Assembly: GCA_025963935.1 (NCBI GenBank)
Contig: JAOPZV010000173.1
Location: 1 to 37,814 of the forward strand
Direction of reading: 5' to 3'
Length of the DNA: 37,814 nt
Origin: Solirubrobacterales bacterium
GTDB taxonomy: Bacteria; Actinomycetota; Thermoleophilia; Solirubrobacterales; Solirubrobacteraceae
The position numbers were made by a program, and so were the translations under genes. Under the pieces are notes generated by a model. The model made no database searches and had not been told where the DNA came from. It saw only the letters and a list, made by a program, of their open reading frames with translations. Below are positions 11,776-29,227 of this stretch, in pieces (within the stretch, counting starts at the first letter, position 1; every line of letters begins with the position of its first letter).

Positions 11776-11802
11776 GCGGTCTCTACGATCGCGACAGCAG
11801 GC

Positions 11803-12979: not shown

Positions 12980-13016
12980 CCTGCGAGCTGCGCCGAGGAC
13001 GCTCCGCCTGCAGGGA

Positions 13017-13022: not shown

Positions 13023-13051
13023 GGCCTTCTTCCGAACGGGATGTCCGCGCC

Positions 13052-14500: not shown

Positions 14501-15648
14501 GGGCCAGCGGTCGCATTTTCGTCGGGATCCCGGACCAGAGGCGCGACCTCCTCCAGGTGCCCGATCAGGCGTGCGAACTGCCTGCGCGCGTCGTATCGAT
14601 CCTCGCAATATGCGCGCGCCCGCGCGCCGATCGCCACGCGTCGCTGGCCATCCGCCAGCAGTCCATTCAGGGCCTCGGCCAGCGCTCGCACCTCTCCGTG
14701 CGGGATGAGCACGCCGGCCCGGCCGCCGTCCAGGAGATCGGGGATGCCGCCGATGCGCGTGGCGAGCACGGGCGTGCCGCAGGCCATCGCCTCGAGCACC
14801 GCCCACGGCACCGCGTCGCCGTACGTCGGCAGGCACATGAGGTCCGCCTGCTGCTGGAGGTCGAGGAGGGAGGGGTCGGACGGGCCGAGGCGGTGGACGC
14901 GCACTCCAGGGCGCTCCGGCACGTCCGCCGGTGTGACGAGGTCCATATCGACGTCCCTGCCGAGTCGCTCCCCGAGCGCGGACAGCAGGTCCTCGCCGCC
15001 CTTCTCCACGAAGCGCCCGCCCACGAACAGCACCCGGGGACGCTCGCGCGGTCGATGCGGGGCAGGCTGGTAGCGGGTCAGGTCGAGACCCGGGTGATGC
15101 TCGACGACGCGCGCCCCGGGCGCAGAGCGTTCAACCGAACTGCGCGTCCAGGCCGTCCAGGCGAGCGTGAGTGCCGCCCGGCGGAAGGCGCGGCGCTCGA
15201 GCGCTTCGCTCGGAGCCATGCCGATCGTCTCACGCAGTCCCGTCTCGCGCCACGACGGCATCTGCGACCAGTCGCCGACCGTCGTGTCGACCGACAGGGC
15301 CGTAGGAACGCTGCGCATCGCGGCGGCCATCACGAGCGCGATCGAGTGGCTGTGGACGTGCACCACGTCCGGCGGCCACGCGCGCAGCTCCTGGTGCAGG
15401 GCGCGACGGGCCCGCACTGCCTGTACGAGGTGCCAGCGCAGCGCGCGGAAGTCCAGGTTCACGCCCGCCAGCGGCCGGATCTGACGGCTCGCGGCGGCGC
15501 GCGCCCAGCGCCCCATTGGGTCGAGTCCCGCGAACCGCGCCTCCACCTCCGGCGCAGTGGACAGCCCGACGCGCAGCGCCTGCTCGAGCTGGCCCTGACC
15601 CATCACATGCGTGCCGAGGTTGCCCTCGTTGAAGAACAGGACGCGCAC
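14497..15648 (-). CDS. GT4-family glycosyltransferase
   Basis: 383 residues with both GT-B domains. The start MRVLFFNEGNLGTHVMGQGQLEQALRVGL and the VVHVHSHSIALVMAA strand are typical of the acceptor domain. The donor domain begins PRVLFVGGRFVEKGGEDLLSAL and has LMCLPTYGDAVPWAVLEAMACGTPVLATRIGGIPDLL. This is a D-x7-E version of the usual E-x7-E motif, keeping the second glutamate. The C-terminus has YCEDRYDARRQFARLIGHLEEV. It is the second gene of a minus-strand pair, 9 nt after the acyltransferase stop, so the two are probably cotranscribed and may act on the same unit. The stop overlaps that of the flippase by 4 nt. Confidence 0.86.
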   Translation of the reverse strand: MRVLFFNEGNLGTHVMGQGQLEQALRVGLSTAPEVEARFAGLDPMGRWARAAASRQIRPLAGVNLDFRALRWHLVQAVRARRALHQELRAWPPDVVHVHSHSIALVMAAAMRSVPTALSVDTTVGDWSQMPSWRETGLRETIGMAPSEALERRAFRRAALTLAWTAWTRSSVERSAPGARVVEHHPGLDLTRYQPAPHRPRERPRVLFVGGRFVEKGGEDLLSALGERLGRDVDMDLVTPADVPERPGVRVHRLGPSDPSLLDLQQQADLMCLPTYGDAVPWAVLEAMACGTPVLATRIGGIPDLLDGGRAGVLIPHGEVRALAEALNGLLADGQRRVAIGARARAYCEDRYDARRQFARLIGHLEEVAPLVRDPDENATAGP

Positions 15649-15657: not shown

Positions 15658-16680
15658 CTATACGGGAAGTCCGCCGCTGCGGCCCACGTCAGGCGGAGGC
15701 GACGGCGCCACCTCCGAGTCTGACGGCATCGCGTCGGTGGCGCCCGCGGCGGCTGCCCAAGAGCCGGGCCGAGTGGGGTCCTCGAGTGTCGCGGGCAGCT
15801 CCAGGATCGAGCGTTCGTGGGCGACGGCGAGCGCGTCGTGCAGCTCCTCTGCCGAAGCGAACCTCCGTGGGTCATGTGCCTGCCCGATGTCGGTCCAGGC
15901 GCGCTGCCCGTCGCGCCTCGCACGGATCGGCAGAACCAGGGCGTCGCTGTCCGCGGCCACCCGCGCCGTGCTGCTGGCGAGCATCACCGTCTTGCCGAGA
16001 AAGCGAGTCGGGCGGCTTCCGGGCATGTCGAAGTAGTTCAACACCATCTCCCCCTGCCCGAGGAGCGCCCGCATCACGCGGGACGCGCCGGGCCTGTAGA
16101 TCATCCGCTCGTTGCGCGGCTGCAGCCCTTGCCACCAGCGCGCCAGGCGGCGCCCCCACTCATCGTGGCCCGGCTCCTCCAGGAACCACGGCGCGGACAC
16201 GATGTACACCGGCGTAGGGCCGTAGCTGATCGCTGATATGTACAGGAAGATCGGGCCCATGTGGCAGGCGCTGAGCAGCACGCCCCGCCGCTGCGCCACA
16301 GCCTCCTCGAGGCGCTCTCGCGACCCCACATCCATGCTCGCCCGCTTCCACGGCTGCCAGAAGAGCACCCGGCAGGCCGCGTCCTCGATCAGGTACTGGC
16401 GGGCGAGCTCCTCGAGCTCGGGCTCTCGCGGGGTGCCGGCGACGGCCGCCGCCATCGCTCCCAGCGCGCGCCGGCGCTCGCTCGGGCTGCTCTCCCAGCT
16501 GGCGGCCGCCTGGGTTGTCGCTCGCCACAGCGCAAGCGGTGTGGGAAGCAGACGTCGCAGAGCCGGCGAGGTCTTGATTCGCAGGCGGAGGCCCACGGAG
16601 GGCATGCGGCGATTTCCGAGCGGTTGCCTGGCAGCCGCGAGCGCCGCCTGGAGCTCCGGATCATCGCTGTGCGCGTGCAT
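15658..16680 (-). CDS. LpxL/HtrB-like acyltransferase with an altered catalytic motif
   Basis: From the ATG at 16680 the protein has 340 residues; MPSVGLRLRIK at residue 26 is an alternative start, and the frame stays open far upstream without gene-like sequence. The LPLAT fold of LpxL/HtrB and PatA-type acyltransferases is suggested by EEAVAQRRGVLLSACHMGPIFLYISAI (124-151) and by NYFDMPGSRPTRFLGKTVMLASSTARVAADSDALVLPI (215-251), the strongest match. The family's H-x4-D/E catalytic motif reads H140-MGPI-F145 here, so the acidic partner is missing. Either the protein is inactive, uses another acid, or belongs to a divergent branch. It precedes a GT4 gene by 9 nt. Acylation of a glycolipid or polysaccharide precursor is inferred, not shown. 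Confidence 0.7.
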   Translation of the reverse strand: MHAHSDDPELQAALAAARQPLGNRRMPSVGLRLRIKTSPALRRLLPTPLALWRATTQAAASWESSPSERRRALGAMAAAVAGTPREPELEELARQYLIEDAACRVLFWQPWKRASMDVGSRERLEEAVAQRRGVLLSACHMGPIFLYISAISYGPTPVYIVSAPWFLEEPGHDEWGRRLARWWQGLQPRNERMIYRPGASRVMRALLGQGEMVLNYFDMPGSRPTRFLGKTVMLASSTARVAADSDALVLPIRARRDGQRAWTDIGQAHDPRRFASAEELHDALAVAHERSILELPATLEDPTRPGSWAAAAGATDAMPSDSEVAPSPPPDVGRSGGLPV

Positions 16681-16793
16681 TCTGCTTGTCGATGGCCGCC
16701 ACTTAGCGGTCGCGGACCCGTCTCGCAGGCTACCCGTCGGGCCTTTGTGGCGCCTCGCGCGCTCGCCTGGCTGAGGGCCGTTGCGGGGATGTA

Positions 16794-16799
16794 TACCGT
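16794..16799 (+). promoter_or_regulatory. -10-like hexamer 7 nt before the ATG at 16807
   Basis: TACCGT is followed by 7 nt and the ATG at 16807. It argues for that start over the in-frame ATG at 16789, which would lie upstream of the transcript start. Confidence 0.4.
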
Positions 16800-16806
16800 C
16801 TGTGCG

Positions 16807-18039
16807 ATGCGGATCCTCGTGGTCTCGACGTTTTATCCCCCCGTGGCGCTGGGCGGCTACGAGGTGGAGTGCGCCGGCGTGGTGGAGCGACTGCGCGAGC
16901 GCCACGACGTGCGCGTGCTGACGAGCGCGCATGATCGCGCGAGCGTCTCGCATGCCGAGGAGGGGGTCGCACGTGAGCTCGCCCTCCTCAGCCCGAACCA
17001 CCGCGGGGCGCTGCACGCGCCGCGTGCCTCTGTGCGCGCGGCGGGCGTGGCCCGCCACGCGCTCGAGTGGCGCCCCGACCTCATCTACTCGTGGAACGGG
17101 TCCTCGATCCCGCAGAGTGCACTGCGCGTGCTTGCCGACAGCGGCGTGCCGCTCGCCTTCCGCGTGTGCGAGCACTGGTTCGGCGGGATCTTCAGCACCG
17201 ATCAGTTCCTGCGGGAGCTCCTGCCGGGCGAGCGCGGGCCTGCGAGGGGCGCATGGGCTGCGGGCTGTCGCCTGGTGAACGCTCTGCCCTCGCTGCGGCT
17301 CGACCCGAGGGCACCCTTCCGCGCGGCGATCTCCTGGAACTCCGAGGCCCTCGAGCGCATGGTGGCGGTGCCGGCGTTCATAGATCCGGTGCTCGAGCGC
17401 GTCGGCCACTCCGTCCCCCGTTACGGCGATCTCTACGCCGACGTCGTGAGGGCGCCCGCCGCTGCGCCCGAGATCGTCTTCCTCGGTCGCGTCACCCCCT
17501 ACAAGGGCCTGTCCGTAGCGATCGAGGCGCTCGCGCTGCTGCGCTCTGATCGCGGGATCGACGCGAGCCTCGTGGTGGTCGGTCCCGAGGACGCGCGCCA
17601 TGGCCGGGAGATGCGAGCGCTGGCGGAGCGGCTCGGCGTGGCCGGCGCGATCCGCTGGCTGGGCCAGCAGACACCCGAACAGGCGTCTGGGGCGCTCGCC
17701 CGGGCTCACGCGCTGATCGTCCCCTCCACCTGGGATGAGCCCTTCCCGCTCGTGACGATCGAGGGAGCCCTCGCCCGCGTACCGCTCGTCGCCTCCGATG
17801 TCGGCGGGATCGGCGAGGGCATGCACGACGAGGAGCACGCCTTGCTGTTCCCCCGCGGTGACAGCGCCGCGGCGGCCCTGGCGCTGGCGCGGGTGCTGCT
17901 CGACGGGGAGGAGACGGCCGCACGCGTCGCGCGCGCTCACGAGCGCGCCCAGGCGTTTCGCATCGGCCCCTACCTCGAGGAGCAGGAGCGCTTCGTGGAA
18001 GACGCCCTGTCCGCGTGGCGCCAGATCACGGTCGCCTAG
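16807..18039 (+). CDS. GT4-family glycosyltransferase
   Basis: From the ATG at 16807 the protein has 410 residues: MRILVVSTFYPPVALGGYEVECAGVVERL is a classic GT4 start with the glycine-rich loop. An ATG at 16789 would add six residues, and much longer in-frame readings run antisense to the acyltransferase gene. The donor domain has EIVFLGRVTPYKGLSVAIEAL, LVVVGPEDARHGREM and ALIVPSTWDEPFPLVTIEGALARVPLVASDVGGI, with an intact E-x7-E motif. It should add a sugar from an NDP donor to a membrane-bound acceptor. It stands alone on the plus strand; 66 nt separate its end from the convergent GT4 gene, with a hairpin between. Confidence 0.87.
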   Translation: MRILVVSTFYPPVALGGYEVECAGVVERLRERHDVRVLTSAHDRASVSHAEEGVARELALLSPNHRGALHAPRASVRAAGVARHALEWRPDLIYSWNGSSIPQSALRVLADSGVPLAFRVCEHWFGGIFSTDQFLRELLPGERGPARGAWAAGCRLVNALPSLRLDPRAPFRAAISWNSEALERMVAVPAFIDPVLERVGHSVPRYGDLYADVVRAPAAAPEIVFLGRVTPYKGLSVAIEALALLRSDRGIDASLVVVGPEDARHGREMRALAERLGVAGAIRWLGQQTPEQASGALARAHALIVPSTWDEPFPLVTIEGALARVPLVASDVGGIGEGMHDEEHALLFPRGDSAAAALALARVLLDGEETAARVARAHERAQAFRIGPYLEEQERFVEDALSAWRQITVA

Positions 18040-18074
18040 AGGCGGGCGCACCGCGGGACTCGCGCCCACTCGAC

Positions 18075-18105: not shown

Positions 18106-19290
18106 TCAGAGGAACTTGGCCAGCCGACTCGTGTCGACGCCGGGAACGGCGAGCGCTCGCACGAGGCGCTCGGCGACCTTCGGCCAAGTCATCAGCGTCG
18201 AATGCCGGTGGGCGAGGGCACCGAGCCGCTGCGCGGTCTCGGGGTCGGCGAGCGTCTCCATCGCCGTGAGGATCTGCTCGCCGTCCTGCGGGTCGACGAG
18301 GATGCCGCCGGGCCCGATCATCGTCGCCGCGCCGCCGTTCGTCGTGCCGATCGACGCCAGGCCGGCCCCACCGGCCTCGGCGTAGACGATCCCGGCGGGT
18401 TCGTGCAGCGAGGGCATCACGAAGGCCGTCGCCCCGCGGTAGAGCGCCGCCATGCGCTCGCGATCGGCCGTCCGCACGAGCGACAGGCGCCCGTGCGCGT
18501 GAACCCCGGCCTGGTCGATGCGGGGATGGCCTCCGACGAGGTCCAGGCGCGCGGCAGGATGGCGCTCCCTGACGCGCGCGAACGCGCTCAGCACGGCGGG
18601 GCCGTTCTTGCGCTCCCAGTCCACGCCGACGAACAGGTAGCGGGGCGTGCTCCAGTCGCGCGGCGCCGGCTCGGGAGACCCGTGGTTCTGCCCCAGCCCC
18701 ACCGTGAAGACCCGCTCGGCGGGGATCCCGTAGCTGCCGACGATGCTCTCGGCGACCCAGTGGGTTGCGCAGCAGCAGGCCACCGCGGATTCATAGATGC
18801 CGCGCTGGCGATCGGCGTAGCGGCGAAGGTCCTCGGCCGACAGGCCGTGCAGATGCGGCCACGGATAGCCGGCCTGCGCCTGCAGCACGGTGGAGTCCTC
18901 GAGCGTCACGACCCGGTAGCCGCCGGGCAGGCGCATCTCGCTGCCACGCTGGACGACGCCGTCGAGGCTCGCGGGGGGAGGCAGGCGCCGGCCGAGCAGC
19001 CACCGCCGTGCTGCGATCGTCGGGCGCCCGAGCTGTGCCGCGGCGTGGAGGCCGGCCGCGGCACGGCGAGGGTGCGCGATGTCCCGCGGCTTCAGCCGAC
19101 CCGCCACGCTCAACAGATGGGTGGTCCGGGCTACCCTTGGCGGCAGCTCTCCGCTTATCGGGATGGCCTGCGCGAGGAGATCCTCCATCGCGGCGAGCAG
19201 CGATCCGGACGCGCCGGAGCCAGCCCGCATGTCACGGGGATCGAGCGAATCGGCGAGAGCAAGGCGTAGCGAGTCGGGCGACCTTGTCAT
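18106..19290 (-). CDS. GT4-like glycosyltransferase
   Basis: 394 residues. The C-terminal donor domain is clear: RYLFVGVDWERKNGPAVLSAF, RLDLVGGHPRIDQ, and TAFVMPSLHEPAGIVYAEAGGAGLASIGTTNGGA, with an intact E-x7-E motif (EPAGIVYAE). The N-terminal half is less typical: the first ~90 residues are rich in Arg, Ala and Leu, and no initial Rossmann glycine loop is obvious. The N-domain is therefore divergent or has an added segment. YRVVTLEDSTVLQAQAGYPWPHL and TATHWVAES-like AVACCCATHWVAESIVGSYGIP belong to the acceptor half. The ATG at 19290 lies 10 nt after a -10-like TACCCT. It is divergent from the Wzz-kinase gene and may share control with it. Confidence 0.78.
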   Translation of the reverse strand: MTRSPDSLRLALADSLDPRDMRAGSGASGSLLAAMEDLLAQAIPISGELPPRVARTTHLLSVAGRLKPRDIAHPRRAAAGLHAAAQLGRPTIAARRWLLGRRLPPPASLDGVVQRGSEMRLPGGYRVVTLEDSTVLQAQAGYPWPHLHGLSAEDLRRYADRQRGIYESAVACCCATHWVAESIVGSYGIPAERVFTVGLGQNHGSPEPAPRDWSTPRYLFVGVDWERKNGPAVLSAFARVRERHPAARLDLVGGHPRIDQAGVHAHGRLSLVRTADRERMAALYRGATAFVMPSLHEPAGIVYAEAGGAGLASIGTTNGGAATMIGPGGILVDPQDGEQILTAMETLADPETAQRLGALAHRHSTLMTWPKVAERLVRALAVPGVDTSRLAKFL

Positions 19291-19441: not shown

Positions 19442-20995
19442 GTGCCTGATTTAGAGCCATCGCTGGACACGCCGTCGGCTCCAACGGTCTCCCCGTTCGA
19501 GCTGCTGTCCGTGCTGTGGCGTCGCAGGCTGGTCGTCATCGCGACGATCGTCATCAGCGTTGCGATCGCGCTCGCTCTGTCTCTGCGCTCGCCGAAGCAG
19601 TACAGCGCCTCGGCTCAGCTCCTCTTCCGCGACCCGGGCTTCGCCCAGGCGCTGTTCGGGAACAACCTGTTCTCGACCGGCAACCAGGAACCGCAGCGCA
19701 CGACACAGACGAACATCGACGTGGTCACATCGCTCAACGTGGCGGCGGAAGCGGCCGGCCTGTTGAAGACGAAAGAACCCGTCAGCTCCCTGCGCGGATC
19801 GATCACGGTCAACCCGAACGCCAACGCCGACATCGCGACGATCACGGCGACGCGCTCGAACCCGCGCGAAGCGGCCGCCGTTGCCAACGCGTTCGCCGAC
19901 GGCTACATCATCTATCGCCGTCAGACCGATCGCTCGACGGTCGCGCAGGCCGAAGAACTCGTAGGCCAGTCGCTCAAGACAGCCGCTCCGGCCGAGCAGA
20001 CCAAGCTCGCGGAAAGCCTTCGCCAGCTCGGCGTGCTGCGCTCGCTGCAGACGGGCGACGCCGAGGTCATCGCCCGTGCGCAGCCGAACCCGGCGGCCGT
20101 CTCGCCGAAACCCAAACGCGACGGCATACTCGGCCTGGTCGTCGGGCTGCTGCTCGGCTGCGGGCTGGCCCTGCTCGTGGACTTCCTCGATCGCCGGCTC
20201 AAGACGATGGAGGACTTCGAACGCGTATGCCCCGACTACCCGGTCATAGCCAGCGTCCCGCACACGCCCGACCCGGTCGGAAGCGCGCACCTCGCCGGTC
20301 CCACGGGCGAGTCCTATCGGATGCTGCGCGAGGGGCTGCGCTTCCTGGACCCGACGGGCAGGGCGCGCTGCTTCGTGGTCACGAGTGCCGACGAGAGCGA
20401 GGGCAAGAGCACCGTTGCCGTGAACCTCGCCTCAGCGCTCGCGGCGGTGGGCCGCAGGGTGATCCTCGTCGAGGGTGACATGCGCCGCCCAACGGCCGCC
20501 GCGCTGCTCGGAGTCCCCCGGGACGTGCCCGGGCTCTCGGACATGCTCGTCTCGAGCGCCGATCTCGATGAGTTCCTCGTGCCGATCGACAGCGAGCCGG
20601 GTCTCTCGGTGATACCGGCCGGCACCGTCCCACCGAACTCCGCCGACCTGCTCAGCGCCGGAAGGATGGCTGAGCTCCTCGCGCAGGTACGCGACGCGGC
20701 CGACTTCGTGATCGTCGATTCCCCGCCGCTGCTGCCCGTCGCGGACACGCGCGTGCTGCTGCGGCTACCCGAGGTCGACGGGGTGATCCTGATCGGCCGG
20801 GCCGGTGTGAGCAGACGCGACCGAGTCCGCGCGACGAGCCGGCTGCTCGCGCAGAGCGGGTTGCGAGTGTTCGGCATGGTGATCACCGACGTCAAGCTGA
20901 CTGCCGGCAGCGGCTACTACCACTACGACTACGACGAGCCGGACCGCCGCAACGGGCGCGCCAAGTCGCGGCAGGCGCGCCCCAGCCGCGTCTAG
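19442..20995 (+). CDS. Wzz/CpsD fusion: polysaccharide chain-length regulator with BY-kinase domain
   Basis: 517 residues combining a Wzz-type membrane part with a cytosolic bacterial tyrosine kinase. Transmembrane segments are at about 29-48 and 226-247, with the external Wzz domain between them and the proline-rich entry ARAQPNPAAVSPKPKRDG. The kinase has Walker A SADESEGKST (315-324), Walker A' ILVEGDMRRP (341-350, with E for the usual first D) and Walker B VIVDSPP (423-429). The C-terminus carries the tyrosine cluster GYYHYDYDEP (Y492, 493, 495, 497), the usual autophosphorylation site. Such proteins set polymer length and drive export. The GTG start at 19442 has no good Shine-Dalgarno. 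No matching phosphatase is in the window. Its TAG overlaps the stop of the convergent Wzy-like gene. Confidence 0.9.
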   Translation: MPDLEPSLDTPSAPTVSPFELLSVLWRRRLVVIATIVISVAIALALSLRSPKQYSASAQLLFRDPGFAQALFGNNLFSTGNQEPQRTTQTNIDVVTSLNVAAEAAGLLKTKEPVSSLRGSITVNPNANADIATITATRSNPREAAAVANAFADGYIIYRRQTDRSTVAQAEELVGQSLKTAAPAEQTKLAESLRQLGVLRSLQTGDAEVIARAQPNPAAVSPKPKRDGILGLVVGLLLGCGLALLVDFLDRRLKTMEDFERVCPDYPVIASVPHTPDPVGSAHLAGPTGESYRMLREGLRFLDPTGRARCFVVTSADESEGKSTVAVNLASALAAVGRRVILVEGDMRRPTAAALLGVPRDVPGLSDMLVSSADLDEFLVPIDSEPGLSVIPAGTVPPNSADLLSAGRMAELLAQVRDAADFVIVDSPPLLPVADTRVLLRLPEVDGVILIGRAGVSRRDRVRATSRLLAQSGLRVFGMVITDVKLTAGSGYYHYDYDEPDRRNGRAKSRQARPSRV

Positions 20996-22401
20996 GTCGC
21001 CCACCTGATCGGGGAGCGGCCACGGCCCCTCCGAGCAGGTCTCCGCCTAGAGCTGACGCCCGGCTCGGCGATCCTCGCCAGCCGCACGGACAGGACCCCT
21101 CCCATGGCGCCGAGCAGCAGGTCGATCTGAGCCCAGTAGAAGCTGTCGTAGAAGACCGTCACGACCGCCATGCCGATGATGCCGAGCGCGAGCGCCAGCT
21201 CCTGCCTCGGGGTCACGCCCAGCCGCAGACACCTGCCGAGCACGCGCAGCGCGACGCCGATCGGAATCAGGGCGCCGAAGAGCCCGATGAGGCCCATGTC
21301 CACGGTGATCGAGAGATAGCCGTTGTCGATCGCGCCGATGCTCGTTTTGTTGGCCGCTTCCTGTGAGGAGAAGCCAGGCGCGCCGGCGCCGAAGACCGGC
21401 TGGTGGCCGATCGTTTCAACGGCATAGCCGTAGCTCCACTGGCGGTGGGTCACGGACTGCGTCGCACCGATGTTGGAGCTGAGCTTCTTTTCGACGATCC
21501 GATGCAGCGACCCGGTGCCGACGATCAGCCCCGCCAGGACCACGATTATCGCCGAGACGGCCGCCAGCCCGCGGTAGTTGCCGGCCCGCGCCTGCAGAAT
21601 CACGGCGATGATCAACATCACGGTCGCCGCGACCCACGAGCTGCGCGATTCGCTGAAGATGAGCAGCGCCGCGGAGCCGGTCGCCAGAGCGCCCGCGAGC
21701 AGCCGTGAGCGCTGGTAGGCGAACAGCAGCGCGGCCGGCAGGAGCCCGACGACCAGGGCGCCATAGGTGATGGGGTAGCCGGCGAAGTACCCGACCCGGT
21801 TCGAGGGTGCCTTGAGGTACGCGTACGCGCCCAGCACACCGAGGATGAGGAGGCCTCCGAACGCCGCCGCAAGCCAGCCGCGGCCCTGCCCGAAGCGCCG
21901 TGCACACAGGAACGTCACGCCGATGAAAACGAAGCCCACGATCCCCGAGCTGATCAGCGCAGAGAACTTCCCGAGCGTGTCGTAGATCAGAACGGCAAGC
22001 GCCGCGAACAGGACTCCCATCAACAGGGCGCCGCGACTCGGCCGAGTTCTGCTGCCGCGGGTCGCGAGCGACCACAGCCACGGGGCAAGGGGGGCGGCGG
22101 CGACGGCCGAGCAGAGGACCTTCTGACGCACCACCGGTGCTTCGGCGTTCTGGGCGACGAAGGGGTACCAGGGGATGACCGCCACGATCACGACCGCCCA
22201 GGGAAATGCCCGCTCGCCGAGCATCGCCAGTGCGATGACGCCGCCAAGCACGACGCACAGCAGCACCGCGGTGCTCGGCTTGCGGTCCGCGAGCGCGCCA
22301 CCGATCAGGCCCAGCAGGATCGCTCCCGTCAGGGCCGCCTGCCAGGTCCCGAGAAGATCGGGCACCCGGCCGCGTAGGTCTTGCCAGCCTTCAGAGGACA
22401 T
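20992..22401 (-). CDS. O-antigen polymerase/ligase-type membrane protein (Wzy_C family)
   Basis: 469 residues with about 11-12 hydrophobic helices. The Wzy_C core is visible as ALLIFSESRSSWVAATVMLIIAVIL followed by an external loop with HRIVEKKLSSNIGATQSVTHRQWSYGYAVETIGHQPVFGAGAPGF, containing the conserved Arg and the H-P-x-x-G-x-G stretch. Late DNGYLSITVDMGLIGLFGALI is typical. Such proteins either polymerise lipid-linked repeat units (Wzy) or ligate glycan to an acceptor. With a Wzz-kinase next door, polymerase is the more likely role. The ATG at 22401 lies 15 nt after a -10-like TACTTT (22422-22417 on the minus strand). Its stop shares a palindromic CTAG with the Wzz-kinase gene. Confidence 0.82.
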   Translation of the reverse strand: MSSEGWQDLRGRVPDLLGTWQAALTGAILLGLIGGALADRKPSTAVLLCVVLGGVIALAMLGERAFPWAVVIVAVIPWYPFVAQNAEAPVVRQKVLCSAVAAAPLAPWLWSLATRGSRTRPSRGALLMGVLFAALAVLIYDTLGKFSALISSGIVGFVFIGVTFLCARRFGQGRGWLAAAFGGLLILGVLGAYAYLKAPSNRVGYFAGYPITYGALVVGLLPAALLFAYQRSRLLAGALATGSAALLIFSESRSSWVAATVMLIIAVILQARAGNYRGLAAVSAIIVVLAGLIVGTGSLHRIVEKKLSSNIGATQSVTHRQWSYGYAVETIGHQPVFGAGAPGFSSQEAANKTSIGAIDNGYLSITVDMGLIGLFGALIPIGVALRVLGRCLRLGVTPRQELALALGIIGMAVVTVFYDSFYWAQIDLLLGAMGGVLSVRLARIAEPGVSSRRRPARRGRGRSPIRWAT

Positions 22402-22558: not shown

Positions 22559-24427
22559 TCAGTTGCCCGCTGCGACCCTCAGCGCTTCGTAGGCGAGCTT
22601 GTGCCCAGATCCATTGCTGTGCACGATCCCGTAGAAGTCGTTGGAGCCGTAGTCGGCGTAGTTGAAGTACACGACCGCGTTCACGTATTTCAGTTCACGC
22701 GCCCACCCCACGAAGCGGGTGACGTTTTCGGCCTGCTGGGCTTCGGTCCACTGCAGCGAGTCGCCCGTGGCGGGCATGCCCACGGCCGTCGGCCAGCCGA
22801 CCTCCGTCGCATACACGGGCAGACCTGTCTGTTCGTGAGCCTGGGTGACGCGTTCGCGTCCTCCGAGCGCACTCAGCGCGGCGTTGTTCTTGCCACCGTA
22901 GGGGTGGACCGTCACGCCGTCCGCGACAGCTCCTGCGGCGAACACTTCGCGGCCGTACTGCGAGCCGTTGAAGCCTCCGTCATAGGAGACGAGCAGCTTG
23001 GGCCGGTTCGCCGCAGGGATCGCTTCGAGCCCGGCGTGAACGGCTTTGGTCATGCTCGCGTACAGCTGGTGGTTGTTGTAGTCCGGGTAGAAGTAGGGGT
23101 TCCCCGGCTCGTTGATCAGCTCGCACGTGGTGGCACCGAGATCCACCGGCTTGCCCTGCCAGAAGGTGCCGCCCTTTCCGTAGCGCTGGAACCACGCGAC
23201 GATTTCGTTGAAGAAACCCTGGTTGTTGTATCCGCCGAGCGTGCCGCCTTCGCCGAACAGCGGCATCAGGTGCACTCCGGCTTTGGCGAGCAGTTCCATC
23301 TGCGAGTCGCTGTTGAAGTGCTTGTAGGAGGAGCGCACGTACTTGACCGCTCCCGACTCGTCGTTGATCGCCGACGCCCACGCCCAGCCGCCGATGTCGA
23401 GGCCGACGATCATGCTCGAGGACCCTCCGGATGAGCCTTCACCCGGGGGCGGCGGGGGCGGCGGGGGCGGCGGAGGCGGCGGCGGCGGAAGCGGTGACCC
23501 GCCGGCGTATGAGATCGCCACCTCGGGCGCCCATGCGCTGCCCTGCACCGCCGTGCGCACGCTGTATTTGACGGTCGCGCCGGGGACGGCCGGAGGCGTC
23601 ACGGACGTACCGCTGACCTCCGAGTACTGGTCCACCGCTCCGGGCACCTTGCGGACGAACACGTAGGTGGTCACGCCCGCTACCTGGTTCCATTTGAGTG
23701 TCCCGCCGGAAGCGGTGATGGCCGGGGCCGCCTGGCTGTCCGGTGGCGGCGGGTGGACCCCGACGGGTGCGTAGGTGATCGACACCTCCGAAGCCCATGC
23801 GGACCACCACGCCGTCGTGCGGACGCTGTAGCGGACCGTCGAGCCCGGAACTGGAGGCGGCGTGATGGACGTGCCGCTGACGACCGAGTACTGGTCGGGT
23901 TGTCCCGGCACCTTGCGCACGAGCACGTACGTGTCGATGCCGGCCACTCGCGTCCACTGCAGCGACTGTCCGGAGACGGTCAGATGCGGGGCGAGCCGTG
24001 GGTTCTCGAAGCTGGCGGCGCTGGTTGCGCCACTGGCGCCACCGGCTTTGCCGACCCTGCCAAACAGCGCAAGGTGCCGCTCCGCGTTCGCGAACCGGCT
24101 GCCCGCGCGCTGGAGTGCGCGGCGCGATGCGTTACAGAGCCCGGGGCGCTTGTGGTGCACGCGCAGGCACCGCTTCAGCTGCTTGGCGTTTGCAACGAGA
24201 ATTCGGTCAGCCCGCCTCGCGCGGCGGGCGGCGTTCATCAGCCGCCGCGGAGGCGTGCGCGAGGTCATCATGGCCCTGGTGTGAGAGTTACGGGCGCCGT
24301 TAGCCGAGGCTGCCTGAGCGGCCGGGGCTGCTCCTGCGGTCGTTGCGAGCGCAAGCGCGCTCGCGCATACCAGCAGAAACACGGCGAGTAGGTCGCGGAA
24401 TGCCCATTGCGGGCGGACGGTGGTCAT
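22559..24427 (-). CDS. Secreted glycoside hydrolase (clan GH-A-like) with two Fn3-like domains
   Basis: 622 residues from the ATG at 24427, which has AAGGAG 5 nt upstream. A signal peptide (1 to about 38, AFRDLLAVFLLVCASALALATTAGAAPA) marks export. A basic, Arg-rich segment follows (50-125). Two tandem fibronectin-III-like domains (about 144-220 and 235-308) are near copies of each other (TYVLVRKVPGQPDQYSVVSG against TYVFVRKVPGAVDQYSEVSG). A proline run (about 314-328) links to the catalytic TIM-barrel-like domain (340-622). There CELINEPGNP supplies the acid/base E440 and YATEVGWPT the nucleophile E542, as in clan A families. It should cut a polysaccharide outside the cell, plausibly the product of this locus. 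Expression appears to be under the upstream c-di-GMP riboswitch. Confidence 0.8.
   Translation of the reverse strand: MTTVRPQWAFRDLLAVFLLVCASALALATTAGAAPAAQAASANGARNSHTRAMMTSRTPPRRLMNAARRARRADRILVANAKQLKRCLRVHHKRPGLCNASRRALQRAGSRFANAERHLALFGRVGKAGGASGATSAASFENPRLAPHLTVSGQSLQWTRVAGIDTYVLVRKVPGQPDQYSVVSGTSITPPPVPGSTVRYSVRTTAWWSAWASEVSITYAPVGVHPPPPDSQAAPAITASGGTLKWNQVAGVTTYVFVRKVPGAVDQYSEVSGTSVTPPAVPGATVKYSVRTAVQGSAWAPEVAISYAGGSPLPPPPPPPPPPPPPPPGEGSSGGSSSMIVGLDIGGWAWASAINDESGAVKYVRSSYKHFNSDSQMELLAKAGVHLMPLFGEGGTLGGYNNQGFFNEIVAWFQRYGKGGTFWQGKPVDLGATTCELINEPGNPYFYPDYNNHQLYASMTKAVHAGLEAIPAANRPKLLVSYDGGFNGSQYGREVFAAGAVADGVTVHPYGGKNNAALSALGGRERVTQAHEQTGLPVYATEVGWPTAVGMPATGDSLQWTEAQQAENVTRFVGWARELKYVNAVVYFNYADYGSNDFYGIVHSNGSGHKLAYEALRVAAGN
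23441..23494. repeat. GGC/GGG-rich repeat encoding a polyproline linker
   Basis: The plus strand reads as repeated gggggcggc units; on the coding strand this is a run of about 15 proline codons in the glycosidase. It is an interdomain spacer and a likely site of length variation by slippage. Confidence 0.7.
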
Positions 24428-24436
24428 GCTTGTCTC

Positions 24437-24512
24437 CTTCGGTAGCCGGGCTGTCTCGGAGAGACCCCTTGCTTTGCGAGCCCGCCTCGCGACGGGTGTG
24501 CCATTTCGGGAA
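24437..24512 (-). promoter_or_regulatory. Cyclic di-GMP-I (GEMM) riboswitch aptamer
   Basis: On the minus strand the 5' leader of the glycosidase gene reads GGCACACC (24502-24495), then a hairpin CCCGTC-GCGA-GGCGGG with a GNRA tetraloop. The near-invariant CGCAAAGC follows (24478-24471). A second stem, GTCTC/GAGAC, comes next, and the 3' closing block GGCTACCGA ends at about 24439. This matches the GEMM-I layout: G-C-A-x-A-C-C, GNRA hairpin, CGCAAAGC, P2 stem, then G-G-x-U-A-C-C-G-A. The 3' end runs straight into the AAGGAG ribosome site (24438-24433), so ligand binding could control translation. Folding and ligand identity (c-di-GMP or cGAMP) were not computed. Confidence 0.75.
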
Positions 24513-24518
24513 CTGGCG

Positions 24519-24524
24519 ACGCTA
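24519..24524 (-). promoter_or_regulatory. -10-like hexamer feeding the riboswitch leader
   Basis: TAGCGT on the minus strand would start transcription at about 24512, exactly at the 5' edge of the aptamer. The same hexamer precedes the propeller gene starting at 31590. No -35 is obvious. Confidence 0.42.
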
Positions 24525-24643: not shown

Positions 24644-24664
24644 GCCTGCAATGGCAGGCTTTTT
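24644..24664. terminator. Stem-loop after the GT4 operon, with a T-run on the plus strand
   Basis: GCCTGC-AATG-GCAGGC is followed on the plus strand by TTTTT. On the minus strand it lies 36 nt after the stop of the GT4 gene at 24700 and is followed only by GGTTT. It most likely ends the minus-strand GT4 pair. The T-run side would stop any plus-strand readthrough, but no plus-strand gene ends here. The DNA from here to about 24530 shows no gene. Confidence 0.5.
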
Positions 24665-24699: not shown

Positions 24700-25818
24700 T
24701 CAGGAGGCCAGCAGCTTGCTCAAGGCCTCGATCGAGTAGCGCTCCTCGGCGAGCTCTCGGCCGTGCCTAGCGATGTCCGCTGCGCCGTCGCGCAGCACCC
24801 GTACGAGCGCTGCGGCGAACTCCTGCTCTCCGTCCGCGAGCAGAGCATGCTCGCCGTCACGCACCGCCAGCCCGGCTGCGGCGCGCCCCGTGGCCACGAC
24901 GGGCATCCCGTAGGCGAGCGCCTCGACGAACTTCAGCGGTGTGCCACCTCCCTGAAGCAGCGGTACCACGACGCATGATGCGCTCGCGTAGGCCTGCGCG
25001 AGATCGTCCACGAACCCCAGTGCTTCCACGCGCGGGTCGCCCGAGGGGGGATGCTCGAGGCCGGCGCCGACGAGCGTCAGGATGGCGTCGGGGACCTCGC
25101 GCCACACGCGGGGGAAGACGCGCTCGAGCAGGAAGCGCAGGCCGTTCTGGTTTGGCTCGTAGACGAAGCTGGCGACGAACAGCACTCGTCGCTCGCGCAC
25201 GTTCGGCGTCACAGCGCGGATCGCCGAGACATCTACGACGTTGGGCACGTAGCGCAGGCGGGCGCCCGGGCAGAGCTCCCGGGCGGCGGCGAGGTCTGTC
25301 TCGCTCACCATCCACGACTCCTCAGCGCGGGCAAGAAGGCCACGCTCGAAGCGGCGCAGCCCCTGTAGCGCCCGGGCGCCGCCGTCGAGGTCTCCGCGGA
25401 AGCTCGACTCGACGTTGTGGGCGTTGTAGGTCACGGCGCGCACGCGCGACAGGCGCATCAGGGCGGCCGCCGCGATCGGCCCGTCGGCGATGACCCGTCC
25501 ACGATCCGCGTCGGCGGCGAGACGCTCGGCCGCTCGCGCGAGCTCCGGGGAGACGCCGCGAGCGAAGCCGGCGGGAACGCCCCTCAGACGGGCGCTCCCG
25601 TAGGTCATCAGCCGCCTGGTCCGGCGTGAGGGCACCACCTCGACGAACTCTATGCCTGGGATCGATCGAAACGCCGCGTCCGGCTCCGGCGCGTCGAAGC
25701 GCGCGTACAGCAGTGTCAGCCCGCGATTCGCGGCGAGCGCCCTCGCCACGCCGTACGTGCGTGCCGCCTGTCCGCTTCTCAGCACGGGCGTGTGCGTGGT
25801 GACGAGGAGATCTCTCAC
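24700..25818 (-). CDS. GT4-family glycosyltransferase
   Basis: 372 residues starting MRDLLVTTHTPVLRSGQAARTYGVARALAAN. Mid-protein AVTYNAHNVESSFRGDL and the E-R-G segment LRRFERGLLARAEESWMVSETDL are typical of the GT4 branch that includes PEP-CTERM/EPS transferases. The donor domain has RRVLFVASFVYEPNQNGLRFLLE, ILTLVGAGLEHPPSG and CVVVPLLQGGGTPLKFVEALAYGMPVVATGRAAAGL, where GGGTPLKFVEA replaces the usual E-x7-E. The start overlaps the end of the upstream GT4 gene by 4 nt, so the two are coupled. A hairpin at 24644-24664 ends the unit. Confidence 0.87.
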   Translation of the reverse strand: MRDLLVTTHTPVLRSGQAARTYGVARALAANRGLTLLYARFDAPEPDAAFRSIPGIEFVEVVPSRRTRRLMTYGSARLRGVPAGFARGVSPELARAAERLAADADRGRVIADGPIAAAALMRLSRVRAVTYNAHNVESSFRGDLDGGARALQGLRRFERGLLARAEESWMVSETDLAAARELCPGARLRYVPNVVDVSAIRAVTPNVRERRVLFVASFVYEPNQNGLRFLLERVFPRVWREVPDAILTLVGAGLEHPPSGDPRVEALGFVDDLAQAYASASCVVVPLLQGGGTPLKFVEALAYGMPVVATGRAAAGLAVRDGEHALLADGEQEFAAALVRVLRDGAADIARHGRELAEERYSIEALSKLLAS

Positions 25819-26996
25819 CGCTCGCCGACCGCCGTCGCGATCTCCTCCAGGCGCCGGTCCCAGGAATGTGAGGCCGCTCGGTGCGAGCGCTCGGCGCGCC
25901 GCTCGGGGCTGTCGGCGGCCAGCGCCTCATCGAGCAGCGTCGCGAGTCCGGCGGCGTCGGGGGCGGTGGCCACGTCCGCCACGCCTTCCAGTGCCGGCAG
26001 AGGGGTGGCCACCACGGGGAGTCCGGCGGCAAGGTACTCGTAGACCTTCATGGGGAAGATGCTCGCCGTCAGATCGTTGCGCGCGTAAGGGATGAGCCCA
26101 GCGTCGGCGGACCGCAGCACCTCGGGTAGCTCCCGATAGGAGCGGGGGCCCAACAGGTGCACGTTGGGCTCCGCCGCGAGCTGCGAGACGTCCGTGTGCG
26201 GGTCGCCGGGACCGATCGGTCCGACGAGCGCGAACGACCAAGACGGGCGAAGCCGGGCAAGCTCGGTGATAAGCGGGAAGTCGAGCTTGATCGACACGAT
26301 CGCGCCGGTGAACACGATCCTTGGCGCGGGCAGGGATGCGACGGCCGCATCAGACGTTCCGGCCTGCAGGGCGCGCGAGAACAGCTCCGTGTCGGCGACG
26401 TTCGGCGCCTCCATTACGTTGCTGGAGATGCCCCTGAGGCGCCTCGCCAGTGCCGGCGCGCTGGCGAGCACGAGATCGGCCCGGGCTGCGAAGCGCTCCT
26501 CGGCAGCGCGAAAGCTCGCCGTGTCGATGCGCTCCTGGGCGGCGATGTCATCGACGCAGTGGTAGATCACGAGCGCCGGCTTCAGCGGGGCGATCAACAC
26601 CTCCGCCTGCGGCACGTATGCCCAGAGGATCGGCTTCTGGAGACCCAGCCGCCTGGCCGCACGTCCAACGAGCCAAGGCAGCAGCCGCCGGTTGAGAGCA
26701 CGCACGATCGCGTAGCGGTGAAACGGCAGGACGAGCGGAGAGATGACGTGGAGGCCGTCGGCGGAACGCGGCGGCCCGAGTCCCCGCCGCAGCCGCCGCC
26801 AGACCCGTGCGAGGTCCCGCCCGGCGAGCTGAGGCTGGCGCAGGCCGAGCGACTCGACGAATAGAACGCGGTTCTCGCGGGCAAGGCGAGACATCAAATG
26901 ATGCTGGTTGGTCCACAGGTCGGTGTCCCAGTCGGCGAATCCCACGCACACGATGTCTCGGTCTCGCAGGCGTGCGCGGTCGGGCATCGGCGCCAT
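25815..26996 (-). CDS. GT4-family glycosyltransferase
   Basis: 393 residues. The N-terminal domain reads DIVCVGFADWDTDLWTNQHHLMSRLARENRVLFVESLGLRQPQ, a start seen in GT4 enzymes of EPS loci related to TuaH-like proteins. LVIYHCVDDIAAQERID and ADLVLASAPALARRL follow. The donor domain has PRIVFTGAIVSIKLDFPLITEL, SFALVGPIGPGDPHTD and AGLIPYARNDLTASIFPMKVYEYLAAGLPVVATPLPAL. An ATG nine bases inside the first one (MPDRAR) is an alternative start. It is first in a two-gene minus-strand unit and divergent from the GT4 gene at 27031, with only 34 nt between starts. Confidence 0.86.
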   Translation of the reverse strand: MAPMPDRARLRDRDIVCVGFADWDTDLWTNQHHLMSRLARENRVLFVESLGLRQPQLAGRDLARVWRRLRRGLGPPRSADGLHVISPLVLPFHRYAIVRALNRRLLPWLVGRAARRLGLQKPILWAYVPQAEVLIAPLKPALVIYHCVDDIAAQERIDTASFRAAEERFAARADLVLASAPALARRLRGISSNVMEAPNVADTELFSRALQAGTSDAAVASLPAPRIVFTGAIVSIKLDFPLITELARLRPSWSFALVGPIGPGDPHTDVSQLAAEPNVHLLGPRSYRELPEVLRSADAGLIPYARNDLTASIFPMKVYEYLAAGLPVVATPLPALEGVADVATAPDAAGLATLLDEALAADSPERRAERSHRAASHSWDRRLEEIATAVGER

Positions 26997-27030: not shown

Positions 27031-28218
27031 GTGCAGTCAGACGGTCAACCGCCGAGCGCTTCCACGCTCGAGGAGCTGCGCCGGCGCTTTCCGCGGGTCG
27101 CGGTCGTGCACGACTGGCTGACCATCCCGGGCGGATCCGAGCAGGTGGTGCTGCAGCTCCTGGAGATGTTTCCAGCGGCGGAGCTGTTCACGTCGGTGTA
27201 CGACCCGGCGCCGTGGCCGGCGGAGATCAAAGAGCGGCCGGTCCATCCCTCCTACCTGAACCGAATCCCCGGTGCGGCTCGCCACTATCCGAAGCTTCTG
27301 CCGTTGATGAACGGGGCGTTTCGCTCGTTCGATCTCGCGGGCTTCGACCTCGTGCTCTCCAGCAGCCATGCCTGCGCCAAGAACGTCCGCACGCCGCCCG
27401 CTGCGCTGCATGTCTGCTACTGCCACACCCCGATGCGTTATGCGTGGGACGCGGAGTTCCTGCGGGGCGAGGAAGTCGGGCGCATCACGGGCCTGCTCCT
27501 GCCGCCGCTGCTGAGCCGGCTGAGGAGGCAGGACCTGGCCGGGGCGGAGGGGCCAGACGTGTTCGTCGCCAACTCGGCCCACGTGGCGGAGCGCATCGCC
27601 CGCTACTACGGCCGCTCCGCGGAGATCGTCCACCCGCCGATCGACGTCGAGCACTTCCTCGGGCTGGAGCGCTCGCCGCAGGACTACTACCTGACGTTCG
27701 GGCGGATCGTCCCCTACAAGCGCGTCGATCTCGCCGTGGCCGCGTGCGGCCTGCTCGGCAGGAAGCTCAAGGTGGCGGGGGCCGGGAGGGCGCTCGGTGC
27801 GGTGCGTGCGAGCGCTGGGAAGGACACGGAGTTCCTCGGCAAGGTCTCGACCGCCGAGCGCGATCAGCTTCTGAGCGGCGCCCGCGCACTGCTGTTCCCC
27901 GGCGAGGAGGACTTCGGCATCGTGCCGGTCGAGGCGCAGGCGGCGGGCACGCCGGTGATCGCCTATGGCGTCGGCGGCGCGACGGAGTCCGTGCTCGACG
28001 GGCGTACGGGTGTGCTGTTCGACGAGCAGAGCCCCGGCTCGCTTGCCGCGGCGATCGAGCGCTTCGAGCAGCTGCAGCTCGACGGCGAGGAAACCCGCCA
28101 GAGCGCCACGCGGTTCGGTCAGAGCCGCTTTCGCACGGAGCTCGCGTCGGTCATCGAGCGCGCGGCGCAGACACGGGAGGCCGACGCGCGCGAACGGGCG
28201 GGCCCCAGGGCGACCTGA
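27031..28218 (+). CDS. GT4-family glycosyltransferase, WbaZ-like
   Basis: From the GTG at 27031 the protein has 395 residues. The N-terminal half is very close in style to WbaZ-type mannosyl/galactosyltransferases: VAVVHDWLTIPGGSEQVVLQLLEMFPAAELFTSVYDP, then GFDLVLSSSHACAKNVRTPPAALHVCYCHTPMRYAWD. The donor half has YYLTFGRIVPYKRVDLAVAACGLLGRKLKVAG and ALLFPGEEDFGIVPVEAQAAGTPVIAYGVGGATESVLDGRTGVLF, with an intact E-x7-E motif (EDFGIVPVE). It probably adds a hexose to the lipid-linked unit; mannose is suggested by the resemblance but not proven. ATG codons at 26908 and 26995 would extend into the divergent gene and are less likely starts. An SDR gene follows on the same strand after 91 nt. Confidence 0.87.
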   Translation: MQSDGQPPSASTLEELRRRFPRVAVVHDWLTIPGGSEQVVLQLLEMFPAAELFTSVYDPAPWPAEIKERPVHPSYLNRIPGAARHYPKLLPLMNGAFRSFDLAGFDLVLSSSHACAKNVRTPPAALHVCYCHTPMRYAWDAEFLRGEEVGRITGLLLPPLLSRLRRQDLAGAEGPDVFVANSAHVAERIARYYGRSAEIVHPPIDVEHFLGLERSPQDYYLTFGRIVPYKRVDLAVAACGLLGRKLKVAGAGRALGAVRASAGKDTEFLGKVSTAERDQLLSGARALLFPGEEDFGIVPVEAQAAGTPVIAYGVGGATESVLDGRTGVLFDEQSPGSLAAAIERFEQLQLDGEETRQSATRFGQSRFRTELASVIERAAQTREADARERAGPRAT

Positions 28219-28270
28219 GGGGCCCACGACGGCGGCCGCACCATTTGAGATGTAGGAACTGGACGGCCTG

Positions 28271-28299
28271 TTGCGCGCCACCCGCGGCGGGGGTAGGCT
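28271..28299 (+). promoter_or_regulatory. Promoter of the SDR gene
   Basis: TTGCGC (28271-28276) and TAGGCT (28294-28299) are separated by 17 nt, the ideal spacing. The ATG at 28310 is 10 nt downstream, so the leader would be only about 4 nt. This is the only -10 in the window for which I also see a -35-like TTG at the right distance. Confidence 0.45.
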
Positions 28300-28309
28300 C
28301 CGAAGTGGC

Positions 28310-29227
28310 ATGCGCGTACTGGTCACCGGCGCCAGCGGGTTCATCGGCGGTGTGCTCTGCGAAAAGCTCCTGCATCGAGGGCACGAGGTCGACGCGCTCG
28401 TCCGCAGGCCGGGCTCGGGGCCTCCCGGAACCCGCGCGCTGTCGGGGGACCTGGGCGATGGTGAGCGCCTTGCCGAAACGCTCCGGAACGAGCGACCCGA
28501 ATGCGTGATCCATCTCGCCGCCGAGATCGCCTCCCAGCGCAGCGAGCACAAGATCCGCGAGGTCAACGTCGACGGCACGCGGCGGCTACTCGATGCGTGC
28601 CTTGCCGCAGCCGGCGCCGAGGCGGCCGGCTGGCCGCGCTTCGTGTTCTCCTCGACGGTCGTCACGGGCGACGCCGGTGGCGCGCTGTTGAGCGAGGATC
28701 AGCCACTTCCGGTGAGGACGCCGTACGGCCGCTCCAAGCAGGAGGGGGAGCGCATGGTCCTCCAGTCCGGCCTTCCCGCCGTGGTTGTGCGACCGTCGCA
28801 CGTCTACGGCCCCGGCGGCTGGTACGCCAACGAGCTGATCCCCCGCCTGCGCCAGCCGGGCCGCTTCGCCGTGATCGGCCGCGGGGCCAACCTGTGGGAC
28901 GTCGTGCACGTCGATGACGTCGCGGCGGCCCTCATACTGGCTGCGGAGAGCGCACCCGGCGGATCCACCTACCACGTCGTCGACGACGAGCCGCTCACCT
29001 TCTACGGGTTCATGGCGCTGACCGCCGAGGCCCTCGGGGTGGGGCCCCCGCGGCGCATCCCAGCCGCGCTCGCCCGCATCGTGGCGGGCTCGGCCGCGGT
29101 GGATGCGGTGGTCCGCTCGGCCCGGTCCTCGAACGCCAAAATCAAGCGGGAGCTCGGCTGGCAGGCACGATTCCCCACGGCGCGCGAGGGCGTCGCCGAC
29201 TCTGTGGCGCGGTTGCAGAGCGACTAA
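28310..29227 (+). CDS. NAD(P)-dependent epimerase/dehydratase, extended SDR
   Basis: 305 residues starting MRVLVTGASGFIGGVLCEKLLHRGHEV, with the cofactor loop G-A-S-G-F-I-G at 7-13. An acidic residue in the GDLGD segment and VIHLAAEIASQRSEHKIREVNVDGTRRLLDAC are typical of extended SDRs. FVFSSTVVTGD gives the catalytic Ser, and YGRSKQEGERMV gives the YxxxK (Y139, K143). VRPSHVYGPGGWYANELIPRL and LWDVVHVDDVAAALILAAES follow the family pattern. It could epimerise, dehydrate or reduce an NDP-sugar, or act on a hydroxysteroid-like substrate; the locus favours a sugar. Its TAA overlaps the stop of the convergent propeller gene (CTAA at 29224-29227). Confidence 0.82.
   Translation: MRVLVTGASGFIGGVLCEKLLHRGHEVDALVRRPGSGPPGTRALSGDLGDGERLAETLRNERPECVIHLAAEIASQRSEHKIREVNVDGTRRLLDACLAAAGAEAAGWPRFVFSSTVVTGDAGGALLSEDQPLPVRTPYGRSKQEGERMVLQSGLPAVVVRPSHVYGPGGWYANELIPRLRQPGRFAVIGRGANLWDVVHVDDVAAALILAAESAPGGSTYHVVDDEPLTFYGFMALTAEALGVGPPRRIPAALARIVAGSAAVDAVVRSARSSNAKIKRELGWQARFPTAREGVADSVARLQSD

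What the first reader, a model, noticed from the sequence alone, without database searches (positions are those of the whole stretch)
24437..24524. A c-di-GMP-I (GEMM) riboswitch controls a secreted glycosidase inside the polysaccharide locus
The leader shows the GEMM layout: GGCACACC, a GNRA-capped hairpin, CGCAAAGC, a P2 stem and GGCTACCGA. A -10-like hexamer lies just upstream and the ribosome site directly downstream. c-di-GMP controls biofilm polysaccharides in many bacteria, usually through proteins. Here an RNA switch would gate release of an enzyme that may cut the polymer made by the neighbouring genes, linking synthesis and dispersal. P2 is short and the base pairs next to CGCAAAGC differ from the usual GCC/GGC, so it could be a divergent aptamer.
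Basis: partly seen in the sequence, partly recalled or inferred. Interest (0 to 1): 0.75.

Follow-up and report, generated by a model that had tools for sequence, protein, structure and literature searches.

The report
c-di-GMP riboswitch gating matrix-cutting glycosidase
A soil bacterium's slime-building gene cluster contains a secreted sugar-cutting enzyme whose messenger RNA carries a genuine sensor for the biofilm signal c-di-GMP, and related species keep the same arrangement, which suggests an RNA switch deciding when the slime is trimmed or dissolved.

Summary
Rfam RF01051 (c-di-GMP-I) matches 24512-24438 (-) full length at 53.9 bits (gathering 35; E 5.5e-8), the only RNA family in the window. 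It ends 10 nt before the ATG of a 622-aa, probably secreted protein with a TIM-barrel, clan-A-like glycosidase domain, inside a Wzx/Wzy/Wzz exopolysaccharide locus of a Solirubrobacterales MAG. It is not strongly divergent: the ligand-contact bases are standard, with one A·G mismatch in P3. Ten same-genus genomes (this one included) have such a switch before a glycosidase-like gene, mostly amid parts of the same locus; the N-terminal module is often conserved while catalytic domains differ. Best mechanism (inferred, about 0.6): a translational OFF switch. P1's 5' arm (UUCCCG) is complementary to the Shine-Dalgarno that abuts the aptamer, so c-di-GMP would hide the ribosome site and low c-di-GMP would release the enzyme. 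Across 29 SD-proximal switches this complementarity exceeds all 200 shuffle sets, but in-silico folding showed no switch in SD accessibility, so ON control remains possible. The logic resembles C. difficile PPEP-1. No experiment supports direction, ligand or substrate.

The parts
24438..24512 (-). c-di-GMP-I (GEMM-I) riboswitch aptamer, 75 nt
   Evidence: RF01051, 53.9 bits, E 5.5e-8, full length
24507..24512 (-). P1 5' arm UUCCCG, proposed to pair with C24441-G24440 and, past a 2-nt AA bulge, with the SD GGAG
   Evidence: sequence; complementarity tested on 29 SD-proximal switches
24481..24496 (-). P2 hairpin with GCGA tetraloop (CCCGUC GCGA GGCGGG)
   Evidence: alignment
24471..24478 (-). 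CGCAAAGC junction with the base that stacks on the ligand (A47 equivalent = A24475)
   Evidence: alignment; base numbering from own knowledge of Vc2
24444..24473 (-). P3 stem (AGC..GGGGUCUC-UCC-GAGAC-AG-CCC..GCU) with one A.G mismatch
   Evidence: alignment
24434..24437 (-). Shine-Dalgarno GGAG directly 3' of the aptamer
   Evidence: sequence
22559..24427 (-). Controlled gene: 622-aa protein (signal-peptide-like start, conserved N-terminal module about aa 76-308 with two repeated FN3-like units, poly-Pro linker, glycosidase domain)
   Evidence: translation; module boundaries from BLASTP against other switch-linked proteins; signal peptide and FN3-like assignment by eye
22562..23422 (-). Glycoside-hydrolase domain, TIM barrel, candidate catalytic Glu440 (NEP) and Glu542 (TEVGWP)
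   Evidence: AlphaFold2 model pTM 0.75, mean pLDDT 67; Foldseek and VIA matches to clan-A glycosidases; motif alignment; motif positions
20992..22401 (-). Wzy-like polymerase/O-antigen ligase, next gene on the same strand, 157 nt after the glycosidase stop
   Evidence: PF04932 E 4e-16
19442..20995 (+). Wzz/tyrosine autokinase chain-length regulator
   Evidence: PF02706, TIGR01007 above cut-off
24700..26996 (-). Two glycosyltransferase genes immediately upstream
   Evidence: PF13692
12920..14500 (+). Wzx-like flippase
   Evidence: PF01943/PF13440

Best explanation
A genuine c-di-GMP-I riboswitch controls translation of a probably secreted, clan-A-like glycosidase that belongs to the exopolysaccharide locus around it. 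Most likely it is an OFF switch: c-di-GMP binding stabilises P1, whose 5' arm (UUCCCG) pairs with the 3' arm CG and, past an AA bulge, with the GGAG Shine-Dalgarno, so ribosomes are excluded while c-di-GMP is high and matrix is being made. When c-di-GMP falls, P1 opens, the enzyme is made and exported, and trims or dissolves the locus's own polymer. Shown by computation: the aptamer, its position, the glycosidase-like fold, the locus, repetition in relatives, excess complementarity of P1 to the SD. Inferred: ligand binding, direction, substrate, dispersal role.
For: Full-length RF01051 hit; 89 of 146 genomes of the family carry such switches; the own genome has 15 GGDEF and 11 EAL matches. In ten genomes of the genus, this one included, a switch of similar layout precedes a clan-A-like glycosidase, and in most of these, parts of the same polysaccharide locus surround it. 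Switch-linked proteins share the N-terminal module (44-49% identity over about 230-265 aa in G002, G016 and G017) while their catalytic domains are far less alike, as expected if the enzyme is matched to a changing polymer. P1-SD complementarity in 29 SD-proximal switches: mean -7.4 kcal/mol against -5.5 for shuffled 5' arms (0 of 200 sets as strong) and -4.4 with arms from SD-distal switches; own versus swapped partners p 0.005; anti-SD-like 5' arms in 21/29 SD-proximal versus 8/53 without a nearby SD, p 4e-7. Best Foldseek match is 4zn2, a P. aeruginosa glycosyl hydrolase (PslG, from memory), E 3.8e-7. Known precedent for the logic: PPEP-1 in C. difficile (PMC11477304).
Against: Constrained folding shows no consistent loss of SD accessibility in the bound state (46 switches, SD free 0.36 to 0.32, p 0.29; AUG becomes slightly freer, p 4e-4), and for the window itself the SD is mostly paired either way (0.19 vs 0.20). 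The window's own P1-SD helix is weak (-5.5 kcal/mol, one G.U). Relatives are not independent, so shuffle p-values are optimistic; the anti-SD motif list was chosen after seeing the sequences. One switch-linked glycosidase (L130, G017) has no SD at P1. The closest ortholog, in G003, lies at a contig end, so its leader cannot be read. Paralogous glycosidases without a detected switch exist.
Confidence: 0.57

Rival explanations
1. Same riboswitch, opposite sign: an ON switch. Without ligand the P3 5' strand and loop (GGUCUCUCC) pair with the SD and the start region; c-di-GMP binding forms P3 and frees the SD, so the enzyme is made when matrix is made.
For: The free minimum-energy fold of the window pairs the P3 5' arm with GGAGA and the bases after AUG; P3's 3' arm GAGACA repeats in the SD region GGAGACA; many relatives carry CUCC or UCUC in the same place; AUG is on average slightly freer in the bound fold.
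Against: Complementarity is uneven: L116 and L137 keep only CUC:GAG; GGUCU is near the general Rfam consensus, so it need not be selected for this; SD accessibility does not rise in the bound state; it does not explain the class-specific P1 5' arms.
Confidence: 0.25
2. The switch works, but the enzyme is part of synthesis (polymer release, length control or clearing of misplaced polymer, like PslG or AlgL), not dispersal. This rival concerns the role and can be true with either switch direction.
For: Glycosidases are common in exopolysaccharide clusters and PslG supports Psl production (PMC9075953); a Wzy-like gene follows on the same strand.
Against: OFF control by c-di-GMP would oppose a role in synthesis, and the protein has a signal-peptide-like start and a long linker region as exported enzymes do; neither is decisive.
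Confidence: 0.3
3. The aptamer is a decayed, non-functional relic or its position by the gene is incidental.
For: One A.G mismatch in P3 and a weak P1; C. difficile has predicted class I switches that do not regulate (PMC6366702).
Against: 53.9 bits, all contact positions standard, similar layout in many same-genus genomes.
Confidence: 0.07

Closest known systems
c-di-GMP-I (GEMM-I) riboswitch, Rfam RF01051
   Same: Full aptamer, GNRA loop, contact bases, 5' leader position
   Different: The SD abuts the aptamer and appears to be part of an extended P1; the published cases read here are transcriptional OFF switches in C. difficile (PMC11477304) or have no known platform (Vc1, Vc2; PMC4744006)
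C. difficile class I switch upstream of PPEP-1 (Zmp1)
   Same: c-di-GMP-I switch on a secreted enzyme that removes an adhesive surface component when c-di-GMP is low (PMC11477304)
   Different: There a protease acting on protein adhesins under transcriptional control; here a glycosidase embedded in a polysaccharide locus and probable translational control
PslG and other glycosidases of exopolysaccharide loci
   Same: TIM-barrel glycosidase encoded in the biosynthetic locus; 4zn2 is the top Foldseek match
   Different: Only 16% identity, different organism and domain layout; an RNA switch on pslG is not known to me
V. cholerae Vc1 riboswitch upstream of gbpA
   Same: Class I switch on a secreted carbohydrate-directed protein (PMC4744006)
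   Different: Vc1 raises expression with c-di-GMP and has no apparent anti-SD; GbpA is a chitin-binding colonization factor

Membership tests
c-di-GMP-I riboswitch (RF01051) | Covariance-model score above gathering, full length | tested here: met
   53.9 vs 35 bits, model 1-87
c-di-GMP-I riboswitch (RF01051) | G at the Vc2 G20 position (c-di-GMP rather than cGAMP type) | tested here: met
   G24502; the meaning of this position is from own knowledge, no paper found
c-di-GMP-I riboswitch (RF01051) | GNRA loop on P2 and the CGCAAAGC junction | tested here: met
   GCGA loop, CGCAAAGC
c-di-GMP-I riboswitch (RF01051) | P1 helix closing the aptamer | tested here: inconclusive
   P1 arms pair better with their own partners than with swapped ones over the set, but the window's own P1 is weak (-5.5 kcal/mol)
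c-di-GMP-I riboswitch (RF01051) | Binds c-di-GMP and changes expression | not testable with these tools
   needs in-line probing and a reporter
Clan GH-A glycoside hydrolase | TIM barrel with NE(P) and a second conserved Glu | tested here: met
   model pTM 0.75, mean pLDDT 67; clan-A glycosidases lead the VIA list, Z about 17, rmsd 3.1-3.9 over about 255 residues; NEP and TE motifs; catalysis itself untested
GH39 / PslG family | Match to the family profile or clear nearest fold | tested here: inconclusive
   No Pfam hit above cut-off, weak PF11790 only; fold nearest to 4zn2 and GH39 xylosidases, tied with GH1, GH5 and GH53
PPEP-1-like dispersal circuit | OFF control and cleavage of the surface component | not testable with these tools
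   direction inferred from P1-SD pairing only

The most novel reading that the evidence does not exclude
A lineage of Solirubrobacterales uses a c-di-GMP-I riboswitch with the Shine-Dalgarno built into P1 as a fixed cassette (switch plus conserved export module) onto which different polysaccharide-cutting domains are swapped to match each species' own polymer, so that one RNA reverses matrix assembly when c-di-GMP falls.
Probability: 0.33. Interest if true: 0.72.

Novelty: new variant of a known kind. Interest (0 to 1): 0.52.

Why it matters
c-di-GMP usually reaches exopolysaccharides through proteins. A riboswitch on a matrix glycosidase inside the synthesis locus would be a direct RNA link between the biofilm signal and matrix breakdown, in an actinobacterial lineage where I found no published work on such switches. 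It offers a testable translational platform for class I switches, and the switch could be used as a tag to find polymer-specific hydrolases.

Tried and rejected
Constrained folding of 46 SD-proximal switches did not show a consistent change of SD accessibility, so it neither supports nor kills the OFF model. The free fold of the window is no more stable than shuffles (z -0.2). I first took G003:C267 and G003:C192 as two halves of one gene; they overlap in query coordinates (L133 covers P0001 76-289, L063/L166 covers about 105-619), so they are different genes and the closest ortholog's leader is unread. A PDB sequence search found nothing meaningful for the protein. A sigma-70 promoter was not found. 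The GH profile used to label switch-linked proteins was iterated on loci that included them; labels for L151, L078 and L080 rest on that profile and the motif alignment without Pfam support. Start codons and downstream ORFs of the 92 switches were picked by a simple script and some picks are clearly wrong. Literature: no paper linking c-di-GMP riboswitches with Solirubrobacter, and none of the eight papers holding c-di-GMP, riboswitch and glycoside hydrolase appears to be about a switch on such an enzyme, judged from titles and abstracts; only open-licence papers are held and the original GEMM paper was not.

Full report
Observation. The minus strand of 24512-24438 carries a complete c-di-GMP-I aptamer: RF01051, 53.9 bits against a gathering score of 35, E 5.5e-8, model positions 1-87. 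It is the only Rfam family over threshold in the window. The ligand-contact positions known from Vc2 (G20, A47, C92; mapping from own knowledge) are G24502, A24475 and C24442, all standard. The only irregularity is one A.G mismatch in P3. The aptamer ends at 24438, GGAG occupies 24437-24434 and the ATG is at 24427.

The gene. The ORF 24427-22559 encodes 622 aa: a signal-peptide-like start, a basic helical stretch, two similar FN3-like units, a poly-proline linker and a C-terminal domain of about 285 aa (division by eye). Pfam and NCBIfam give nothing above cut-off. AlphaFold2 on a shallow three-sequence alignment gives a TIM barrel of moderate quality (mean pLDDT 67, pTM 0.75). Foldseek's top solved match is 4zn2, a P. 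aeruginosa glycosyl hydrolase (PslG from memory; E 3.8e-7, 16% identity), and VIA ranks GH39 xylosidases first (Z 17.5) with GH1, GH5 and GH53 close behind. The motifs INEPGN and TEVGWP give candidate Glu440 and Glu542. I call it clan-A-like, family unassigned.

The locus. Around it are glycosyltransferases (24700-26996, 18106-19290, 14497-15648, 6396-8740), a Wzy-like polymerase (20992-22401), a Wzz/tyrosine autokinase (19442-20995), a Wzx-like flippase (12920-14500), and sugar aminotransferases and an epimerase (9482-13155). The genome is probably a Solirubrobacterales MAG: the only named relatives found are from Solirubrobacterales bacterium MGR_bin406. It encodes 15 GGDEF and 11 EAL matches, so c-di-GMP signalling is likely present.

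Relatives. RF01051 matches occur in 89 of 146 genomes of the family and in 40 of 61 sampled genomes. I fetched all 92 switches of that sample and read the downstream genes. They fall into two broad layouts. In one, the SD lies away from the aptamer; type IV pilins are frequent there, and P1 is of the type GGUG:CACC, CUG:CAG or GUCG:CGAC. In the other, the SD touches the aptamer (often ACCGAAGGAG), and the genes mostly encode proteins with signal-peptide-like starts, including clan-A-like glycosidases in G000, G001, G002, G005, G007, G010, G013, G016, G017 and G019 of the same genus (G017 lacks the SD itself) and in a few other genera, GHL15-type hydrolases (L091, L103), a polysaccharide lyase (L147) and a beta-helix protein (L065).

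Synteny. tblastn of the window's proteins on 7-20 kb around these switches finds locus genes near most of them. G002 (L175) and G016 (L170) keep GT-GT-switch/glycosidase-Wzy-Wzz-hyp803-GT nearly as in the window, mostly at 63-75% identity. G001, G005, G013, G017 and G019 keep parts; G007 (L168) keeps several genes at 34-47%; G010 (L174) keeps little besides one glycosyltransferase; G033, G035 and G054 do not share the locus convincingly. BLASTP shows that the N-terminal module of the window protein (aa 76-308) is shared at 44-49% identity with the switch-linked proteins of G002, G016 and G017; G001, G003, G005, G010 and G019 align at 35-43% over stretches that begin in that module; the catalytic halves are 29% identical in G017 and not detected by BLASTP in G002 and G016. 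A constant export module with a changing catalytic domain, at a constant place in a polysaccharide locus, is what a polymer-matched enzyme would show, but other causes are possible.

Mechanism. In the window P1 would be U24512-U24511-C24510-C24509 with G24434-A24435-G24436-G24437 (one G.U), then an AA bulge, then C24508-G24440 and G24507-C24441. So the Shine-Dalgarno would be inside P1. I tested this on the 29 SD-proximal switches. Mean duplex energy of the 5' flank with its own 3' flank is -7.4 kcal/mol; shuffled 5' flanks give -5.5 and none of 200 shuffled sets is as low; 5' flanks borrowed from SD-distal switches give -4.4; the fraction of SD bases paired is 0.77, 0.62 and 0.48. Within the class, true partners pair better than swapped ones (p 0.005; SD-distal class 0 of 5000). 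Anti-SD-like 5' flanks occur in 21 of 29 SD-proximal and 8 of 53 others (p 4e-7; the motif list was chosen after looking). These tests ignore shared ancestry, so the p-values are too small by an unknown amount. Because ligand binding is known to stabilise P1 (own knowledge of class I switches), this predicts translational repression by c-di-GMP.

Against this, folding with the aptamer enforced did not lower SD accessibility consistently (0.36 to 0.32 over 46 switches, p 0.29), and the window's SD is mostly paired in both states. The free fold instead pairs the P3 5' arm with the SD, which would suit an ON switch. Energy models lack the ligand and tertiary contacts, so I keep OFF at about 0.6 and ON at about 0.25.

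Comparison. C. difficile PPEP-1 is the closest working analogue: a class I switch shuts off a secreted enzyme that removes adhesins, so that it acts when c-di-GMP is low (PMC11477304). For V. cholerae Vc1 and Vc2 the platform is unknown and Vc1 has no evident anti-SD (PMC4744006). Glycosidases within exopolysaccharide loci are common, and PslG aids synthesis (PMC9075953), so a synthesis role for this enzyme is a serious rival to dispersal.

Verdict. A real member of c-di-GMP-I with a recurrent and, as far as the searched papers show, undescribed target and possibly an SD-in-P1 translational platform. The aptamer call is near certain (about 0.97), control of the glycosidase likely (about 0.9), direction and role open.

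Noticed in passing
L100 / L001 (G000:C163:380-460, -): Second c-di-GMP-I switch of the same genome (57.8 bits) precedes a collagen-like protein with a signal-peptide-like start.
   Followed up: partly
L144 / L003 (G000:C140:1957-2031, +): Third switch (49.6 bits) has no clear long ORF downstream; a similar leader with GCCACGGAGGGC before a GTG or TTG start recurs in G014, G018 and G005.
   Followed up: partly
L111 (G033:C1:88066-88140, +): A switch before a glycosidase has A at the G20-equivalent position, the change associated with cGAMP-type GEMM-I switches (own knowledge).
   Followed up: no
L120 (G018:C2:81710-81786, -): A c-di-GMP-I switch precedes an HD_5 domain protein, possibly an HD-GYP phosphodiesterase, which would be a feedback loop.
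   Followed up: no
L130 (G017:C38:36141-36215, -): Switch-linked glycosidase whose ATG starts 2 nt after the aptamer with no SD; P1 could be GU.GG:CC.AC instead.
   Followed up: partly
pilin-type loci such as L093, L122, L127, L140: Type IV pilin genes with c-di-GMP-I switches use a GGUG:CACC P1 and a distant SD, a different expression platform in the same lineage.
   Followed up: partly
window 24644-24659: Terminator-like hairpin with a T-run for + strand transcripts, lying between two minus-strand genes.
   Followed up: no
window 15658-18069 (-) and 27037-28665 (-): Two long proteins (803 and 542 aa) without Pfam match that are conserved in the same polysaccharide locus of relatives.
   Followed up: no
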